The notes under the pieces: generated by a model
What the model was told of the DNA's origin: nothing
Seen by the model: only the letters and a program-made list of their open reading frames with translations
The model's database searches: none
Made by a program: the position numbers and the translations under genes
Assembly: GCA_038881895.1 (NCBI GenBank)
Contig: JAVZOV010000001.1
Location: forward strand, 310,001 to 374,000
Length of the DNA: 64,000 nucleotides
Origin: Thermoprotei archaeon
GTDB lineage: Archaea; Thermoproteota; Thermoprotei; Gearchaeales; WAQG01
Reading direction: 5' to 3'
In this document: in pieces, positions 3,898 through 41,215 of the stretch
Numbering within the stretch: position 1 is the stretch's first letter
How the letters are laid out: each line of letters opens with the position of its first letter

Positions 3898-5070
3898 TCA
3901 ATATTGGGTTCTGAGTTGAGTAGAAATGCATAGTGAATTGTTACTTTTATTCCTACTTAACCCTTCCCTCTCGATTAATTCGTTGAGGGCTCTCGGGGAG
4001 AACCCAATTCCCCGCATCTGAAGGTTCAACACCGCTATGATATTTCTATCCATTGTTAGTCCGCATTCTTCGCATCTCATTATCCTGCCCAGATAGGAAG
4101 CCATGCTTCCTGAGCAGACCGGGCAGGTTTTAGACGAGTTGGCTGGGTTAACGTATTTTACTGGTAGGTTAAGCCACTTCAGCTTGTATTCGAGCATAAA
4201 CTGGAATGTTCTTGCGTTCCACTTTGAGAGCTTTCTATTCATGTCTTTAGACTTGTTGAGGATTCGCCCCTTTACACCTTTCAGGTTTTCAAGTATTGCT
4301 CCGCAGTTCTTCTCCTTGAGCTCCCCCGCAATCTGCGTGGTTAGTTTGTGCATGAAGTCCTCGGCTCTATTCTTCTCACGTCCAGAGTACTTCTCTAATA
4401 GTCTCTTTGAGGTTAGAGGCTTAATCTTAGATAACTTTTGTATCCTCTGTCTTTTAACCTCATAAACTCTATGAATATGGTAGAGCTCTCTTAAGTCATA
4501 GCGCTTAACCTCGCCATCTATGAACGCCATCACGTTCGTTAAGTTAACGTCAAATGATGCCCACTTCTCAGCCTTCGGCTCAACCCTCTTCTTAACTGTA
4601 ATTATCAGCTCCTTCTCAGTCATAAGTAGTCCACCGACTTTATCAAAGTCTCTCGGAATCCACGAACACTTACTCAAGTCAACCTCAAGATAACGCTTAT
4701 TAGGTTCAATGCTTACCTTCAGTATGCCGTTTCTGAAGCTGAAAAGCGTGCTCTTGATGTAGACTGTCCTCTTAGTTATCTCAGGCTTACCTTCAGCTTT
4801 CCCCTTGTTATAAAGGGTTATCCAGCCCTTAACAAGTCCTACGACAGAGTTCATTGCTGAATCAACGTAGTGTTTGGAGTATTTCCACTCCCGTAGCAGT
4901 TCATCTCTAAGCTCTCTCCTATCCTTTCTATCGAATTCGAGGTGAGCCTTCTCGGAAATTTTAACGTGCGAGAAGATTGCGTCTAAAGCCTTCCGCTTAA
5001 CTTTGAAGTATTCTTCGATTAAATCCTTCGGAGCCTCTATTGGGATCCCGTAGCTCTTAACTGCCTCCAT
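3898..5070 (-). CDS. tnpB: TnpB RNA-guided nuclease, IS607 copy a
   Basis: A 390-residue TnpB, the transposon-encoded ancestor-like relative of Cas12. The RuvC residues are all present: Asp in SFDVNLTN, Glu in ILENLKG and Asp in TMDRNIIAVLN. The zinc finger CPVCSG...CEEC lies between the last two. The N-terminal helical part begins MEAVKSYGIPIEAPKDLIEEYF. Its start overlaps the end of the upstream HTH gene by 34 bases, pointing to translational coupling. The reading frame runs about 8 bases beyond the inferred right end, so the last three residues come from flanking DNA. By family knowledge it would cut DNA matching a guide read from just outside the right end. Nothing in the sequence suggests inactivation. 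Confidence 0.93.
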   Translation of the reverse strand: MEAVKSYGIPIEAPKDLIEEYFKVKRKALDAIFSHVKISEKAHLEFDRKDRRELRDELLREWKYSKHYVDSAMNSVVGLVKGWITLYNKGKAEGKPEITKRTVYIKSTLFSFRNGILKVSIEPNKRYLEVDLSKCSWIPRDFDKVGGLLMTEKELIITVKKRVEPKAEKWASFDVNLTNVMAFIDGEVKRYDLRELYHIHRVYEVKRQRIQKLSKIKPLTSKRLLEKYSGREKNRAEDFMHKLTTQIAGELKEKNCGAILENLKGVKGRILNKSKDMNRKLSKWNARTFQFMLEYKLKWLNLPVKYVNPANSSKTCPVCSGSMASYLGRIMRCEECGLTMDRNIIAVLNLQMRGIGFSPRALNELIEREGLSRNKSNNSLCISTQLRTQY

Positions 5071-5293
5071 AGCCTCTCAACTTCGCTCTTGGGATATCTC
5101 AGCTTGCCAGTTGGGAGCCTAACTGCTCTAATAATGCCTTTCCTTTGCCACTCCCAGAGAGTCTTAACTGAGATGTTGAATATCTTTGCAACATCCTTTG
5201 GTCTAAGCAGTTCTTCGTAATCTCCAGACATCGTTAAGGATAAAGCAATCAACCTCTATTTAAACCTATCCGTCTCGAAACTGCTGACAACGG
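3906..5293 (-). mobile_element. IS607-like element, copy a (HTH plus tnpB, no resolvase domain)
   Basis: Boundaries come from comparing four copies. On the minus strand the left end reads CCGTTGTCAGCAGTTTCG (5293 down), matching CCGTGGTCAGCAGTTTTG in copies at 10403 and 39539. The right end reads AACTCAGAACCC and stops at about 3906, as in the other copies. The element holds a short MerR-like HTH gene and a full-length tnpB in overlapping frames; the serine recombinase domain is absent. No terminal inverted repeats are seen, as expected for IS607. Copy a is somewhat more diverged at its left end than copies b and d, so it is probably an older insertion. Confidence 0.8.
5037..5231 (-). CDS. 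MerR-like HTH protein (resolvase N-terminal domain only), copy a
   Basis: About 64 residues forming only the MerR-like helix-turn-helix of an IS607 resolvase: LLRPKDVAKIFNISVKTLWEWQRKG followed by the wing residues RAVRLPTGKLRYPKSEVERL. It stops immediately after the HTH, where the full resolvase at 35566-36180 continues into the YARVSS catalytic domain. I chose ATG 5231 because a TTTAAATA box lies about 25-30 bases upstream inside the element end, giving a nearly leaderless transcript; the longest frame would begin at 5252. Copies b and d encode the same truncated product, so the truncation is not a private accident of this copy. It may bind the element ends or the promoter; that is inference. 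Confidence 0.8.
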   Translation of the reverse strand: MSGDYEELLRPKDVAKIFNISVKTLWEWQRKGIIRAVRLPTGKLRYPKSEVERLWRQLRATGSQ

Positions 5294-5443
5294 CTTTTAG
5301 CTGTAATCCGGTGTTAGGAATCCTCTAATATTCCGCGTTCTCATATCTATCGAAGAGATCATTACGTTAGTCTTTGAATTCAAGATGTTCATAACAATAC
5401 TATTAATTAACTTTCAAATTAATTTAATCGGAATCAATTTTAT

Positions 5444-10236: not shown

Positions 10237-10464
10237 TTATCTCATAAGCAAGAAAATACTTAACCCTACAAAATGAACACCACCCAATTGCTTGTGGTAT
10301 AGTACCACTCTACTGATACAACAATATATTATAATGGCCCAAGCTTTTCGTCCTTTCAGAATAAGGATTCGACAACAGTTCAGAAATAGAACAAGGAGGA
10401 AGCCGTGGTCAGCAGTTTTGGAATAGATAGGTTTAAATATTTGTTTAACTCTATTAACTCTTTG

Positions 10465-10650
10465 ATGAAAGAAGAACTACTTAGACCAAAAGATGTTGCT
10501 AAGAAGTTCGGTATCTCAGTTAAAACGCTCTGGAAGTGGCAGAAGAAAGGCATTATTAGAGCAGTTAGGCTTCCAACTGGTAAGCTACGCTACCCGAGGA
10601 GCGAAGTTGAAAGGCTATGGAAGCAGTTAAAAGCTACAGGATCCCAGTAG
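10465..10650 (+). CDS. MerR-like HTH protein (resolvase N-terminal domain only), copy b
   Basis: About 61 residues: MKEELLRPKDVAKKFG, then SVKTLWKWQKKG and wing RAVRLPTGKLRYPRSEVERL, ending right after the HTH. A TTTAAATA box at 10431-10438 inside the element end lies about 27-30 bases before ATG 10465, so the message should be leaderless. A GTG at 10405 would add 20 residues. The recombinase catalytic domain (YARVSS) that follows this HTH in complete IS607 resolvases is missing, exactly as in copies a and d. The stop lies 34 bases inside tnpB. Confidence 0.8.
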   Translation: MKEELLRPKDVAKKFGISVKTLWKWQKKGIIRAVRLPTGKLRYPRSEVERLWKQLKATGSQ

Positions 10651-11771
10651 AGGTTCCAAAAGATTTAATCGAAGAATACTTCAAAGTTAAGCAGAAGGCT
10701 TTAGACACAATCTTCTCACACGTTAAAATTTCTAAGAAGGCTCACCTTAACTTGAAAGCTGAGGATAGGAGAGAGCTTAGGGATGAACTGCTACGAGAGT
10801 GGAAATACTCAAAGCATTACGTTGACTCAGTAATAAACTCCGTTATCGGATTGGTTAAGGGCTGGATAACACTATATAATAGGGGGAAAGCGAATGAGCC
10901 TCCTGAGATAACTAAAAAAACCGTTTACATTAAGAGCACGCTCTTCAGCTTCAGAAATGGTATACTGAAGATAAGCATTGAACCGAACAAACGTTATCTT
11001 GGGGTTGACTTGAGTGAGTGTTCGTGGATTCCAAAAGACTTTGATAAAGTCGGTGGACTACTTATGACTGAGAAGGAGTTGATAATTACGGTTAAGAAGA
11101 GGGTTGAGCCCAAAGCTGAGAAGTGGGCTTCCTTCGATGTTAACTTAACGAACATAACAGCTTTCATAGATGGCGAGATCAAGCGCTATGACTTGAGGGG
11201 GCTCTACCATATTCACAGAGTTTATGAGGTTAAAAGACAGAGGATGCAAAAGTTATCTAAGATTAAGCCTCTAACATCAAAGAGACTATTAGAGAAGTAC
11301 TCTAAGCGTGAGAAGAATAGAGCCAAGGACTTCATGCACAAACTAACCACGCACATTGCGAGGGAGCTCAGGGAGAAGGACTGCGGAGCAATACTTGAAA
11401 ACCTGAAAGGTATAAAGGGGCGAATTCTTAACGGCTCAAGGAAAAATAACAGAAAGCTCTCAAAGTGGAACGCAAGAACATTCCAACTCATGCTCGAATA
11501 CAAGCTGAAGTGGCTTAACTTACCAGTGAAATACGTTAACCCAGCTAACTCATCTAAAACCTGCCCAGCCTGCTCAGGAAGCATGGCTTCCTATCTGGGC
11601 AGGATAATGAGGTGCGAAGAATGCGGTTTAACGATGGATAGGGATGTTGTAGCGGTGTTGAACCTTCAGATGCGGGGAATTGGGTTCTCCCCGAGAGCCC
11701 TCAACAAATTAATCGAGAGGGAAGGGTTAAGTAGGAATAAAAGCAACAATTCACTATGCATTCCTACTTAA
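10617..11771 (+). CDS. tnpB: TnpB RNA-guided nuclease, IS607 copy b
   Basis: A 384-residue TnpB with a complete RuvC site: Asp174 in SFDVNLTN, Glu261 in ILENLKG and Asp341 in TMDRDVVAVLN, with zinc finger CPACSG...CEEC in between. It overlaps the HTH gene by 34 bases. The stop falls just inside the right end (CIPT then stop), so this copy has what is probably the native C-terminus; copies a and d read past the element end. Very similar to copies a and d and clearly different from copy c. Confidence 0.94.
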   Translation: MEAVKSYRIPVEVPKDLIEEYFKVKQKALDTIFSHVKISKKAHLNLKAEDRRELRDELLREWKYSKHYVDSVINSVIGLVKGWITLYNRGKANEPPEITKKTVYIKSTLFSFRNGILKISIEPNKRYLGVDLSECSWIPKDFDKVGGLLMTEKELIITVKKRVEPKAEKWASFDVNLTNITAFIDGEIKRYDLRGLYHIHRVYEVKRQRMQKLSKIKPLTSKRLLEKYSKREKNRAKDFMHKLTTHIARELREKDCGAILENLKGIKGRILNGSRKNNRKLSKWNARTFQLMLEYKLKWLNLPVKYVNPANSSKTCPACSGSMASYLGRIMRCEECGLTMDRDVVAVLNLQMRGIGFSPRALNKLIEREGLSRNKSNNSLCIPT

Positions 11772-11991
11772 TCCAGAACCCCGAGAGGTTGAGATCAAGC
11801 CTTCATGAAGGGTCGGCATCCACAAAAATACAAATGAAGATAATACAGTTTTCATAACACTCAATAAATTCTAAATAAAGATCATAACTCTTCTAAACGA
11901 ACGATTAACATAAATTCAGAATAAAACTTTCCTCTCTTTATTTCAGACTTAATTCATGAGATTTAACGCTTGCATAATACAACATCATAAT

Positions 11992-33832: not shown

Positions 33833-34384
33833 GTGTACTGGTGGGAAGTATTAGGTGGAATTTATGGTTTGTTATTATTTCTTACTTTAGGTTTTTATTT
33901 AAACAAAATAAGACATCTACCAAGCTTAAAACAGATTAATAAAATTATTGACAATGGACCTTTAGTATCTATTATTGTTCCTGTTAAGAATGAAGCTGAT
34001 ACAATTGAAGAATGTTTATCCTCTCTCATTAACCTTAAGTATAAGTCGAAAGAGATCATCGTTGTCCTAGGAGAGTCTACTGATGGAAGTGAGGAGATCG
34101 TAAGAAAGTTTAGCGACGAGATTAAAATTATTCGTGAACCTCCGTTACCTGATGGTTGGATTGGAAAAAATTGGGCCTGTTATATTGGTTATCAAAATTC
34201 AAGTGGAGGTCTACTTCTGTTTACTGATGGTGATACTTCTCATGATGAATATTCACTCTCTAAAACCGTATCCATTATCATTAATGAAAATGTCGACATG
34301 ATTACACTTTTTCCTAAATTCATCTTCAGATCTTTATGGGAAAAACTTATCACGCCCTTAATAGCTGTTTTCATAGGGTTCTGA
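33833..34384 (+). pseudogene. GT2-family glycosyltransferase, truncated by IS607 copy c
   Basis: The first 180 residues of a membrane-associated GT2 enzyme: an N-terminal hydrophobic helix (VLGGIYGLLLFLTLGFYL), then VSIIVPVKNEADTIEECLSSL, the nucleotide-sugar DxD region LLLFTDGDTSHDEYSL, and the start of the following part. The frame stops in the right end of the adjoining element (GFstop made by CATA|GGGTTCTGA). Related enzymes are about 350-400 residues with two or three C-terminal membrane helices. No C-terminal half is found on the far side of the element: tRNA-Gln is there instead, so DNA has been lost. The stump is unlikely to be active. Confidence 0.8.
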
Positions 34385-34385
34385 A

Positions 34386-35597
34386 CTAAGTATGGATTCC
34401 ATACATATCCATACTTAGTTCTTGAGCCTCATCCCTCTTGTCCTCCTCTGGGTTCATTGGAGGGCTCATCGGGGTTAGCTCCCTTCGGGGAAAACCCATG
34501 AATCCCCACATCCTAAGGAACGTTTTCCAAATGTTTATTGACGCGTTTTTCTGCCTATCGATTATAAAACCGCATTTTGGGCACTTGAAGACTGCTCCCC
34601 TTAGGTCTTTGTTGTAGTACCCGCATTTGGAGCAGGTCTTCGAGGTGCCCTTCGCATTCACATATATGGTAGCATAACCATTCCACGCAGATTTGTATTC
34701 CACATACCTTTGTAGTTTGATGTAGTTGTGCTTGCTGTTCTGCCTATTCATACTTCTACTCTTCGTCCTAGCCACCCTCTCCTTGAAGTTCGTCAAGTCC
34801 TCGAAGATATTTGTCCTGTTGGATAGCTGCTTAGCCAGCTTGTGTAGTACATAGTTAACTCTATTTCTCTCCCTTGAACTGTACTTCTCCAGGAGCCTCT
34901 TCCTGGTTTTCTCTGGGAGCTTTTGGATGACCCTCCTCTTCAGCTCGTACGTCCTGTGGATAGTATAAATTTCCTTCAAGCTTATCGAATAGTGTGTTTC
35001 ACCGTCATAACCATCTAAGGTTAAGAGGTTCACGTCCCATGCTATTGGGTCTTTAATCTTTAGCTCCACCTCTTTTCTAACAGTAACTATGAGCCTGTCC
35101 TGTTTAAGTATGAGTTCGCCGAGGTCTAAACCCCTTATCCTATCCCAGCACCACGTCTTCCTCAAATCTACGGTCACGCTCTCTTCATAGGGTTTAATCG
35201 AAACCTTAAGCACGCCGTCCCTGTAACTGTAGAGGGTTTCCTTAACTCTAACGAACTTCCTCCTCAGTTCAGGCCTACCTCTTCCTGCCCGCCCACGTAG
35301 ATATCTTTTCCTCCACGATTCGAGCACGGAATAAGCCTGTTTTATCGCGGAGTCCACGTAATGCTTGGAGTAAACCCACCCCTCAAGATACTTATCCCTA
35401 AGCCACTTCCTAAAAGCCTTATCCTTCCTCAAAAACGGTATAAGCCTCTTGCCCCTTCTTTCCCATGCAATGTTCCTCCATAAGTCATCCAAGATAGAGT
35501 TTAAGATGCGCATGTAGTCCTCTATAAGCTCGTTCACCTCAAGGTTATATGGTATTGAGTACGCTTTAACTAACAAGCTTCTTGACACCTTCAACAA
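34386..35597 (-). CDS. tnpB: TnpB RNA-guided nuclease, IS607 copy c
   Basis: A 403-residue TnpB of a different subfamily from copies a, b and d. RuvC residues are intact: Asp in [12 protein letters not shown], Glu in [11 protein letters not shown] and Asp in [14 protein letters not shown]. Zinc-finger cysteines are CSKCGYY and CPKCGF. N-terminal helical segment starts [17 protein letters not shown]. It overlaps the resolvase gene by 32 bases, the same coupling seen in the HTH-only copies. No sign of inactivation; the C-terminus ([19 protein letters not shown]) ends inside the element. Confidence 0.94.
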
Positions 35598-36180
35598 CCT
35601 CCCTATACTTATGGCTTCTCATGCCGTAGAGCTTTCCAGCGAAATGAGCAACTATGGTGATTAAGTCTTCCACAAGCTCTTCATGAGGAGTTTTCTCTTC
35701 ATGGTTTATCACTTCTATTTCTGTTCCGAAAACTGTGAACATTTTCTTTAAAGTTTCAATACCAAATCTTGTGAGCCTGTCTTCGTAAGCGATTATCAGC
35801 TTGGATATTTTCCTTTCTGAAACCATATTTAAGAGTTTCAGGAAGTTTTTTCTGCCTTCGTTAAGTCCAGAACCAATATCCGTTAAAACTTGAATTTCAC
35901 CGTAACCTTTCTCTTTAGCGTAGCTTGAAATAAGTTGTTTCTGTCTTTCCAAATCATCCTTTTGTGTTGAAGATGAAACCCTTGCATACCCTACAATAAT
36001 TCTTTCCTCTCCTAAATCAAGGATGCGTTTTATTTCGCCTTCAGGTACTCTCCTCCTACCCCCAGGCGTCCTCATACACCTAATTAATCCTTGCTTATCC
36101 CAAATCTGAAGTCGTCTAACGCTAACACCAAGAATTCTACTGGCTTCCTTCATCGTATAATGCTTCTCTACACTCATCAA
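35566..36180 (-). CDS. tnpA: IS607-type serine resolvase
   Basis: A 204-residue recombinase with the DNA-binding domain first, as in IS607. Residues 1-50 are the MerR-like HTH ([24 protein letters not shown], then [13 protein letters not shown]). Residues 60-190 are the catalytic domain: [19 protein letters not shown] holds the nucleophilic Ser, followed by [16 protein letters not shown] and [13 protein letters not shown] with its conserved Arg residues. The C-terminal helix ends with [19 protein letters not shown]. It is the only complete resolvase in the window. Start is within ATGATG at 36180; a TTTTATAG-like box stands upstream. Confidence 0.95.
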
Positions 36181-36257
36181 AATAAATATCCATGAACGTC
36201 TATAAAAATCTATCTATTTGGAAGCTGCTGTCCAACCCCTAAGATAAGAAAGTTTGT

Positions 36258-39138: not shown

Positions 39139-39295
39139 TTGTCCCTAAGCTACACGCTTCACTGGGTTTAACGATAGCTAAGTATACTTTTCTCGTTGAC
39201 ATCTACACCAATTAAGCCTGAAGTTTTTCTTTCTTCAATGCATTTCCTGAAAGTAACGTGGAGATAGTATTCATCATTTGACTTTACGAGCCTAG
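39134..39295 (-). pseudogene. tnpB: tnpB internal fragment of a decayed IS607 element
   Basis: The minus strand reads SRLVKSNDEYYLHVTFRK, then CIEERKTSGLIGVDVNEKS around the first RuvC Asp (GVDVN), and after a one-base shift LAIVKPSEACSLG. Neither end of tnpB is present. It directly follows the C-terminal part of a resolvase gene (39292-39538), so an internal deletion has joined them. It belongs to the element whose left end is at 41250-41267. Confidence 0.7.
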
Positions 39296-39538
39296 AGCCT
39301 TCCTGCAAAACTTGAAACCAAAGCAATGAGATCCTCTACAAGCTCTCGATAAGCATCTTTAGGCTCGTCACCGTTAGCAACTTCAATTTTTACATTATGA
39401 GAAGCGAAATAACGCTCCAAGTACTTGAAGCCGAATCTTGCAAGCCTATCCTTGAAAGCTATTATGATAATTCCTACCTTCCTTTTCTCAACCATGTCAA
39501 AAATTTTGTTCATGAACTCTCTATTTTCGTTAAGCCCG
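39292..39538 (-). pseudogene. tnpA: IS607 resolvase, C-terminal part (gene split by copy d)
   Basis: Reads GLNENREFMNKIFDMVEKRK, then IIIIAFKDRLARFGFKYLERYF and ELVEDLIALVSSFAGRL, the second half of a serine resolvase catalytic domain, ending at TAG where tnpB debris begins. It continues exactly from the N-terminal part at 40915-41215, which stops at VIAVLEDV. The two halves surround IS607 copy d. Confidence 0.85.
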
Positions 39539-40914
39539 CCGTGGTCAGCAGTTTTGGAATAGATAGGTTTAAATATTTGTTTAACTCTATTAACTCTTTG
39601 ATGAAAGAAGAACTACTTAGACCAAAGGATGTCGCAAAGATATTCGGTATCTCAGTTAAAACGCTCTGGAAGTGGCAGAGGAAAGGCATTATTAGAGCAG
39701 TTAGGCTCCCAACTGGTAAGCTCCGCTACCCGAGGAGCGAGGTTGAGAGATTATGGAAGCAATTAAAAGCTACAGGATCCCAGTAGAAGCTCCAAAAGAT
39801 TTAATCGAAGAATACTTCAAAGCTAAGCGGAAGGCTTTAGATGTAATCTTCTCACACGTTAAAATTTCCAAGAAGGCTCACCTTAACTTGAAAGCTGAGG
39901 ATAGGAGAGAGCTTAGGGATGAACTGCTACGAGAGTGGAGATACTCCAAACACTACGTTGATTCAGCAATGAACTCCGTTATCGGATTGATTAAGGGCTG
40001 GATAACATTATATAATAGGGGGAGGGCGAAGGAGCCTCCTGAGATAACTAAGAGGACAGTCTATATTAAAAGCACGCTCTTCAGCTTCAGAGATGGTATA
40101 CTGAGGGTAAGCATTGAACCGAACAAACGTTATCTTGAGGTTGACTTGAGTGAGTGTTCGTGGATCCCAAGAGACTTTGATAAAGTCGGTGGACTACTTA
40201 TGACTGAGAAGGAGTTGATAATTACAGTTAAGAAGAGGGTTGAGCTCAAGGCTGATGAGTGGGCATCATTTGACGTTAACTTAACGAACGTGACGGCGTT
40301 CATAGGTGGCGAGATCAAGCGCTATGACTTAAGAGAGCTCTACCACATCCACAGAACCTATGAAACTAAGCGGCAGAGGATACAAAAGTTATCTAAGATT
40401 AAGCCCAACACATCAAAGATGCTCCTCAAGAAGTACTCTAGACGTGAGGAGAATAGGGCTAAAGACTTCATGCACAAACTAACCACGCAGGTTGCAGGGG
40501 AGCTCAAGGAGAAGAACTGCGGAGCAATACTTGAAAACCTGAAAGGTGTAAAGGGGCGAATCCTCAACGGCTCAAGGAAAAATAACAGAAAGCTCTCAAA
40601 GTGGAACGCAAGGACGTTTCAGTTTATGCTTGAATACAAGCTTAAATGGCTTAATTTACCAACAAAATACGTTAACCCAGCCAACTCATCTAAAACCTGC
40701 CCAGCCTGCTCTGGAAGCATGGCTTCCTATCTGGGCAGGATAATGAAGTGCGAAGAATGCGGGTTAACAATGGATAGAGATGTTGTAGCGGTGTTGAACC
40801 TTCAGATGCGGGGAATTGGGTTCTCCCCGAGAGCCCTCAACGAATTAATCGAGAGGGAAGGGTTAAGTAGGAATAAAAGCAACAATTCACTATATTCCTA
40901 CTTAACTCAGAACC
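39539..40914 (+). mobile_element. IS607-like element, copy d (HTH plus tnpB), inserted in an older resolvase gene
   Basis: Left end CCGTGGTCAGCAGTTTTG at 39539 and right end AACTCAGAACCC at about 40914. Very like copy b throughout. The flanks are the two halves of a resolvase gene on the opposite strand; removing the element rejoins them around a GG-containing site (VLEDV...GLNE), as expected for IS607 insertion without a sizeable target duplication. This defines the ends of the whole HTH-tnpB family. Confidence 0.88.
39601..39786 (+). CDS. MerR-like HTH protein (resolvase N-terminal domain only), copy d
   Basis: About 61 residues, almost the same as in copy b: MKEELLRPKDVAKIFGISVK, then TLWKWQRKG and RAVRLPTGKLRYPRSEVERL. 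The frame is open back to 39397 but that part is the flanking resolvase debris, so ATG 39601 is the start; a TTTAAATA box at 39568-39575 is at leaderless distance. It ends after the HTH with GSQ and a stop 34 bases inside tnpB. Same truncation as copies a and b. Confidence 0.8.
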   Translation: MKEELLRPKDVAKIFGISVKTLWKWQRKGIIRAVRLPTGKLRYPRSEVERLWKQLKATGSQ

Positions 40915-40967
40915 CTGTTACATCCTCCAAGACTGCAATAACTTCACATCCGTTCGACCTTGCATAA
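39753..40967 (+). CDS. tnpB: TnpB RNA-guided nuclease, IS607 copy d, with altered C-terminus
   Basis: A 404-residue TnpB with intact RuvC Asp (SFDVNLTN), Glu (ILENLKG) and Asp (MDRDVVAVLN) and zinc finger CPACSG...CEEC. Near the 3' end it has lost two bases relative to copy b (ACTATATTCC against ACTATGCATTCC). The frame therefore changes after NNSL and runs out of the element into resolvase debris, replacing the native tail with about 20 foreign residues. The nuclease core is unaffected, but the reading frame now covers the right end, where the guide RNA would end. Confidence 0.9.
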   Translation: MEAIKSYRIPVEAPKDLIEEYFKAKRKALDVIFSHVKISKKAHLNLKAEDRRELRDELLREWRYSKHYVDSAMNSVIGLIKGWITLYNRGRAKEPPEITKRTVYIKSTLFSFRDGILRVSIEPNKRYLEVDLSECSWIPRDFDKVGGLLMTEKELIITVKKRVELKADEWASFDVNLTNVTAFIGGEIKRYDLRELYHIHRTYETKRQRIQKLSKIKPNTSKMLLKKYSRREENRAKDFMHKLTTQVAGELKEKNCGAILENLKGVKGRILNGSRKNNRKLSKWNARTFQFMLEYKLKWLNLPTKYVNPANSSKTCPACSGSMASYLGRIMKCEECGLTMDRDVVAVLNLQMRGIGFSPRALNELIEREGLSRNKSNNSLYSYLTQNPVTSSKTAITSHPFDLA

Positions 40968-41215
40968 TCTGGTAAACTTTGCTTCTGCCTCTCTAAATCC
41001 CCTTTCTGTTCCTGATCATGAGAGGAAACTCTAGCATAAATCACAGCTTTTTAGACATGTTTGGTTTAACAATGCCCATCAAACGTTCAACTTCACTCTC
41101 AGGTATCCTTCTCCTATCACCAACAGTTCTAACAACTTTAACCTTACCTTGTCTATCCCATTTTCTAAGCGTATTAGGATGAATACCAGCAACCTCTCAA
41201 TCGTCATGTAAATAA
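40915..41215 (-). pseudogene. tnpA: IS607 resolvase, N-terminal part (frameshifted)
   Basis: The minus strand reads EVAGIHPNTLRKWDRQGK, VVRTVGDRRRIPESEVERLM, a stop after NMSKK, then in another frame VIYARVSSHDQEQKGDLERQ and VIAVLEDV at the edge of copy d. An in-frame stop also precedes EVAGI. These are the HTH and the nucleophile region (YARVSS) of a resolvase of another subfamily. The remaining half is at 39292-39538. Confidence 0.85.

What the first reader, a model, noticed from the sequence alone, without database searches (positions are those of the whole stretch)
3906..5293. A recurrent IS607 derivative that keeps only the HTH of its resolvase, beside an intact TnpB
Three copies (3906-5293, 10403-11781, 39539-40914) share one design: a leaderless gene of about 61-64 residues that is just the MerR-like HTH, ending right after the wing, overlapping by 34 bases a TnpB with all three RuvC acids. 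The serine recombinase domain is absent in all three, although a complete element (copy c) with the same final right-end bases is in the window. Copies b and d are very alike, so the short form has moved as a unit. Either it is mobilised in trans by a full resolvase, or the HTH has become a stand-alone factor (regulator or end-binding partner) of the TnpB-guide RNA system.
Basis: partly seen in the sequence, partly recalled or inferred. Interest (0 to 1): 0.72.

Follow-up and report, generated by a model that had tools for sequence, protein, structure and literature searches.

The report
Transposon keeping only its DNA-binding domain
In many archaea a jumping element has thrown away the cutting half of its own transposase but keeps, under strong selection, the small DNA-binding half next to an RNA-guided nuclease, so it probably moves by borrowing a neighbour's enzyme and uses the leftover piece as a regulator.

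Summary
The three HTH-only/TnpB elements are real. One claim is wrong for the named copy: its TnpB has lost the third RuvC acid (D343N), alone among 22 copies. The form is not local. The genome holds 22 full-length copies (A) at unrelated sites with sharp ends and no room for a recombinase domain. It also holds a second HTH-only family (B2, five copies), made by one in-frame deletion of the catalytic domain of the resident full IS607 element (B), and a third type. HTH-only+TnpB pairs occur in many other archaea, with several HTH and TnpB lineages. The stand-alone HTH is under purifying selection (dN/dS 0.145; other frames above 1) and folds as a BldC/Xis-like winged helix. A and B share left and right ends, and a right-end hairpin covaries. 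Best reading: non-autonomous IS607 derivatives, mobilised in trans by full TnpA, with the HTH kept as a left-end-binding regulator of the promoter there. Binding and regulation are inferred. Against necessity: Brockarchaeota copies spread with a broken HTH, and six host genomes show no resolvase. I found no earlier description in the open library.

The parts
3906..5294 (-). HTH-only/TnpB element, copy a
   Evidence: Sharp borders GCC...CAGAACCC shared with 21 other full-length copies
5037..5231 (-). Stand-alone winged-HTH ORF of copy a (64 aa)
   Evidence: Pfam HTH_17 E=1e-11; dN/dS 0.145 in the family; winged-helix model
3898..5070 (-). TnpB of copy a, RuvC-III acid lost (D343N); frame runs 8 nt past the element's right end
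10402..11781 (+). HTH-only/TnpB element, copy b
10402..10464 (+). Left end and promoter of copy b (TTTAAATA at 10432-10439), proposed HTH/TnpA binding region
   Evidence: Left end conserved across A, B and other genomes and overlaps the promoter; no binding data
10465..10650 (+). Stand-alone winged-HTH ORF of copy b (61 aa)
10617..11771 (+). TnpB of copy b, RuvC D/E/D and CCCC zinc finger intact
11724..11774 (+). Right-end hairpin (15 bp) of copy b, likely guide-RNA scaffold, followed by AGAACCC
   Evidence: z = -6.7; covariation 95% paired against 86% in reshuffled arms
39538..40915 (+). HTH-only/TnpB element, copy d
39601..39786 (+). Stand-alone winged-HTH ORF of copy d (61 aa)
39753..40967 (+). 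TnpB of copy d, acids intact; frame runs past the element end at 40915
34376..36235 (-). Full IS607 element (copy c, type B) with TnpA 35566-36180 and TnpB 34386-35597: candidate helper (left border approximate)
   Evidence: PF00239 and IS607 transposase model; ends
39292..41044 (-). Broken resolvase gene of another IS607 element, interrupted by copy d
   Evidence: Two resolvase pieces on either side of copy d

Best explanation
These are non-autonomous IS607-family elements. They have lost the serine-recombinase half of TnpA and are excised and inserted in trans by full TnpA proteins of resident IS607 elements that share their ends. The retained winged-HTH peptide is a selected stand-alone protein. 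It most likely binds the left end, where the element's own promoter lies, as a BldC/Xis-like multimer, and so represses its own HTH-tnpB transcript and competes with or tunes full TnpA at the shared ends. TnpB with its right-end guide RNA keeps the element from being lost after excision. Shown: architecture, sharp ends without target duplication, many insertion sites, recurrence, purifying selection on the HTH, winged-helix prediction, shared ends, right-end hairpin. Inferred: trans mobilisation, left-end binding, repression, TnpB activity.
For: 22 full-length copies plus deletion forms with identical borders at unrelated sites and no recombinase. Full B elements in the same genome share 29-32 of 38 left-end bases and CAGAACCC. 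B2, an in-frame deletion of B's catalytic domain, is dispersed at five sites with one junction. HTH dN/dS 0.145 against 1.3-2.0 off frame, lowest in recognition helix and wing; 0.06-0.18 for most pairs between genomes. Winged helix closest to BldC and Xis. The same architecture recurs in many archaea. In IS1535 the same domain is needed for end binding and TnpA covers about left-end 7-75 (PMC6188088), which here is the promoter.
Against: Brockarchaeota copies multiplied with a broken HTH. Six of 18 genomes with HTH-only elements show no resolvase, though these are drafts. No direct repeats clear enough to name as binding sites were found in the left end. No binding, expression or transposition data exist.
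Confidence: 0.6

Rival explanations
1. The HTH peptide is an accessory architectural factor, like an excisionase: it coats the left end and helps a foreign TnpA assemble or choose excision over insertion, rather than repressing.
For: Foldseek ranks phage Xis and the GIsul2 excisionase among the nearest folds; NCBIfam's excisionase domain model matches weakly; TnpA works as a multi-subunit filament on the left end (PMC6188088).
Against: IS607-family TnpA alone suffices for transposition (PMC6188088). Brockarchaeota elements spread with a broken HTH.
Confidence: 0.17
2. The HTH ORF is a passenger: it stays because the left-end DNA and translational coupling to tnpB are needed, not because the peptide does anything.
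For: The ORF overlaps tnpB by 34 nt, and in the four copies with an early stop (..VERLWR*) that stop still lies past the tnpB start. Brockarchaeota lost the HTH.
Against: Neither DNA ends nor coupling explains a dN/dS of 0.145 concentrated in recognition helix and wing, nor 0.06-0.18 between genomes. No full TnpA carrying the type-A HTH was met; the nearest full one is 51% identical.
Confidence: 0.15
3. The pairs have been domesticated by the host as regulators (TldR-like) and no longer move.
For: Copies are 7-18% diverged, yet both genes stay intact in most. Copy a's TnpB lost one catalytic acid and B-family TnpB has Q at that place.
Against: 21 of 22 A copies keep D, E and D. Exact ends, many sites and shared-junction deletion derivatives fit mobile elements.
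Confidence: 0.05

Closest known systems
IS607 family (IS607, IS1535, ISC1926, ISC1904)
   Same: Winged-HTH start of TnpA overlapping tnpB; no terminal inverted repeats or target duplication; GG/CC at the ends; TnpB
   Different: The serine-recombinase domain is missing; the HTH is a gene on its own
TnpB RNA-guided nucleases (ISDra2 TnpB, SisTnpB1)
   Same: RuvC D/E/D (21 of 22 copies), CCCC zinc finger, hairpin at the element's right end
   Different: Accompanied by an HTH-only gene instead of a transposase
BldC / Xis / MerR-type winged helices
   Same: Fold and DNA-binding surface
   Different: Below NCBIfam's BldC cut-off; encoded inside a TnpB element
Truncated-transposase repressors (from memory: IS1 InsA, P-element KP)
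   Same: DNA-binding part of a transposase kept without catalysis
   Different: Here it replaces the transposase as a fixed architecture in many genomes; repression untested
TldR (nuclease-dead TnpB regulators)
   Same: TnpB family with a guide RNA
   Different: RuvC acids are kept in 21 of 22 copies and the elements look mobile

Membership tests
IS607 family (autonomous) | TnpA with winged HTH plus serine-recombinase domain | tested here: not met
   Element of 1378-1389 bp with HTH only; no PF00239 match in any A copy
IS607 family (autonomous) | no target duplication, GG/CC at both ends | tested here: met
   GCC...CCC borders, no duplication
IS607 family (autonomous) | tnpB overlapping the upstream ORF | tested here: met
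   34-nt overlap
Non-autonomous IS607 derivative | shares ends with a full element in the same genome | tested here: met
   A against B: 29-32 of 38 left-end bases, CAGAACCC right end
Non-autonomous IS607 derivative | moved in trans by TnpA | not testable with these tools
   Inferred from dispersed copies only
TnpB RNA-guided nuclease | RuvC D, E, D | tested here: met
   21 of 22 copies; window copy a fails (D343N)
TnpB RNA-guided nuclease | guide-RNA scaffold at the right end | tested here: met
   Hairpin with covariation; expression not tested
TldR | loss of RuvC catalysis | tested here: not met
   except copy a
BldC family regulator | NCBIfam NF033787 cut-off (77 bits) | tested here: not met
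   47 bits; fold similar
Truncated-transposase repressor | represses transposition or its own promoter | not testable with these tools
   Left end overlaps the promoter; no binding data

The most novel reading that the evidence does not exclude
The HTH-tnpB pair is a self-sufficient selfish module that no longer needs any recombinase: TnpB cuts guided by the right-end RNA and the cell's recombination copies the element or its parts, while the HTH regulates the dose. This would account for intact elements in genomes without any detectable resolvase and for the free recombination among the 22 copies.
Probability: 0.1. Interest if true: 0.85.

Novelty: new variant of a known kind. Interest (0 to 1): 0.62.

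Why it matters
It shows that losing the catalytic half of an IS607 transposase while keeping its DNA-binding half beside an RNA-guided nuclease is a recurrent, selected outcome across archaea, not simple decay. It makes a testable case that TnpB systems can carry a dedicated small regulator or end-binding partner, and that TnpB elements can persist as passengers of other elements' recombinases.

Tried and rejected
A hidden recombinase domain in another frame: rejected (element length). A single local founder: rejected. Decay of the HTH in this genome: rejected. The short HTH frames L127, L130, L175, L179, L183, L187 and L188 are broken full TnpA genes (L187 broken by masked bases) and were not counted; L110, L037 and the MerR-like 158-232-aa genes (L057-L059, L109) were not counted as cases in the text, although L110 and L037 did enter the tree. 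TGA read as Trp in Brockarchaeota was considered and dropped, because a shared 16-nt deletion breaks the same frame. Plasmid and viral collections gave no relatives. Rfam gave no match. MAFFT misplaced the 5' arms of the hairpin, so arms were paired by hand. Left-end direct repeats were sought without a clear result. Ten literature searches found no description of HTH-only/TnpB elements; the library holds only open-licence papers.

Full report
WHAT IS THERE. The three elements lie at window 3906-5294 (-), 10402-11781 (+) and 39538-40915 (+). Each starts GCCGT[GT]GTCA[AG]CAGTTT, has TTTAAATA at positions 31-38, an HTH ORF from about position 64 that stops 34 nt inside tnpB, a TnpB of about 384 aa, and ends ...CAGAACCC. 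At 1378-1389 bp there is no room for a recombinase domain in any frame. The HTH matches Pfam HTH_17 and MerR and the first 47-49 positions of NCBIfam's 187-position IS607 transposase model. One claim fails: the TnpB of the named copy has MDRN where its sisters have MDRD. HMMER alignment to ISDra2 TnpB, whose D191, E278 and D361 form the catalytic centre (PMC10097598), places D361 at that residue. Copy a is the only one of 22 that lost it.

A FAMILY, NOT A CURIOSITY. The genome (1.75 Mb, 7 contigs) holds 22 full-length copies, a 1082-bp form, two 724/727-bp forms with one shared internal junction, and fragments. All full copies have the same borders, different flanks and no target duplication. 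Identity is 82-93%, so b and d (91%) are not specially close. Copy d sits inside a broken resolvase gene of another IS607 element. If the borders are read as GG-core insertion (PMC6188088), the constant third base (GCC/GGC) is either element or target preference; this was not settled.

A SECOND AND A THIRD CASE IN THE SAME GENOME. Full IS607 elements of type B (five intact, including window copy c) carry TnpA and TnpB. Five further loci (L073-L077) carry B with one identical in-frame deletion of the catalytic domain (...REERIIVG|MRSRKYREVV...), giving a 92-codon open frame (80 aa from its ATG) with HTH plus TnpA tail before an intact TnpB. A single-copy third type is L078.

OTHER ARCHAEA. HTH searches over 81 class members and 398 phylum members, regions fetched and a domain classifier show HTH-only ORFs directly overlapping or abutting TnpB in many genomes: G008, G059, G088, G119, G123, G131, G137, G191, G201, G205, G241, G259, G262, G379, G380 and others, in several TnpB lineages; some of these TnpB frames are broken. 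In named genomes type-A TnpB with an HTH-only ORF occurs in Geocrenenecus, Wolframiiraptor, Terraquivivens, Bathyarchaeota, Jordarchaeia, Archaeoglobaceae, HR04, Nitrososphaerales, Baldrarchaeota and Odinarchaeota; one relative at 59% identity (L210) has a full TnpA. The same TnpB type is paired with several different HTH types. On a TnpB tree of 56 rows the fewest switches between full and HTH-only is 10, with 9 forced by starred branches. Part of these come from recombination between B and B2, and two doubtful rows (L037, L110) are in the tree, so fewer are safe as independent origins: A, D, Z and B2, plus single cases in G262, G380 and G059.

SELECTION ON THE HTH. Over 22 copies, outside the tnpB overlap, dN/dS is 0.145 (bootstrap 0.07-0.28) against 2.0 and 1.3 in the other frames; TnpB gives 0.18. 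It is 0.28 in the N-terminal arm, 0.11 in the recognition helix and 0.08 in the wing. Between genomes most pairs give 0.06-0.18; one pair with three changes in all gives 0.58. B2 gives 0.095, but B2 can exchange with B. The frame is open through the domain in 21 of 22 copies. Control lineage: at least eight Brockarchaeota copies share a 16-nt deletion in the HTH, mostly with a stop, and give 0.39; five of them keep an intact TnpB at 0.20. So the HTH is usually selected, but the element can spread without it.

FOLD. AlphaFold on a 15-row alignment gives a confident winged helix (pLDDT 87). Foldseek ranks BldC first, then SoxR, phage Xis and the GIsul2 excisionase. From general knowledge, BldC and Xis bind direct repeats as head-to-tail multimers without a dimerisation domain.

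ENDS AND GUIDE. A and B share 29-32 of the first 38 left-end bases and the right-end CAGAACCC. Left ends are conserved across HTH-only elements with different HTHs. The right end forms a 15-bp hairpin (z about -6.7) followed by a 7-nt tail. Among 14 divergent sequences 95% of cells pair against 86% (maximum 92%) when arms are reshuffled (arms chosen by hand). This fits a TnpB guide-RNA scaffold whose guide is the flanking host DNA. In Sulfolobus, RNAs derived from the distal part of an ISC1904 element are known (PMC3674436).

MECHANISM. In IS1535 the N-terminal winged helix is required for end binding, and TnpA dimers cover roughly left-end 7-75 (PMC6188088). In type A that stretch is the promoter. 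A stand-alone HTH binding there would repress its own transcript and could compete with TnpA. This is the most likely role, but it is inference. Trans mobilisation follows from the lack of a recombinase, exact ends, many sites, shared ends with B, and the dispersed B2 deletion family. Against a helper everywhere: 6 of 18 tested host genomes have no PF00239 match; these are draft assemblies.

RECOMBINATION. The 22 copies behave as a recombining pool: informative site pairs within 20 bp show all four gametes in 49% of cases, against about 86% beyond 100 bp (permutation p < 0.005). This explains the lack of close pairs and means selection is read from the pool. Assembly chimeras cannot be excluded entirely, but 12% divergence makes them unlikely.

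VERDICT. Real and recurrent, with a selected HTH: a new variant of IS607/TnpB elements. I found no prior description in the open library; subscription papers and ISfinder were not searchable.

Noticed in passing
L037 (G000:C3:48955-49359 and on), ORF of 635 aa: A resolvase catalytic domain and a TnpB lie in one open frame with no stop between them, with the HTH out of frame upstream: a possible recombinase-TnpB fusion.
   Followed up: no
window 34386-35597 (-) and the B/B2 copies: TnpB of the full B family reads DRQ where ISDra2 has the catalytic D361 (DRD), in the copies read; its nuclease may be altered or dead.
   Followed up: partly
22 copies of type A in the genome (L001-L022): The copies recombine freely with each other: linkage decays within about 100 bp. 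TnpB-driven gene conversion could be the cause.
   Followed up: partly
L191-L193, L195, L196, L225-L227 (Brockarchaeota, JAFNIV01): Eight copies share a 16-nt deletion in the HTH, most also a TGA; five keep an intact TnpB. An HTH-less form has spread.
   Followed up: yes
L026 and L027 (G000:C2:430215-430941, C1:487188-487911): Two 724/727-bp elements keep both ends and the HTH but lost most of tnpB with the same junction, so this smaller form moved too.
   Followed up: partly
G042, G137, G201, G241, G379, G101: Genomes with HTH-only/TnpB elements but no PF00239 resolvase match at all.
   Followed up: no
window, just outside 36235 (copy c left end): The full B element of the window sits a few tens of bases beside a tRNA-like gene (seen by eye, not scanned).
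   Followed up: no
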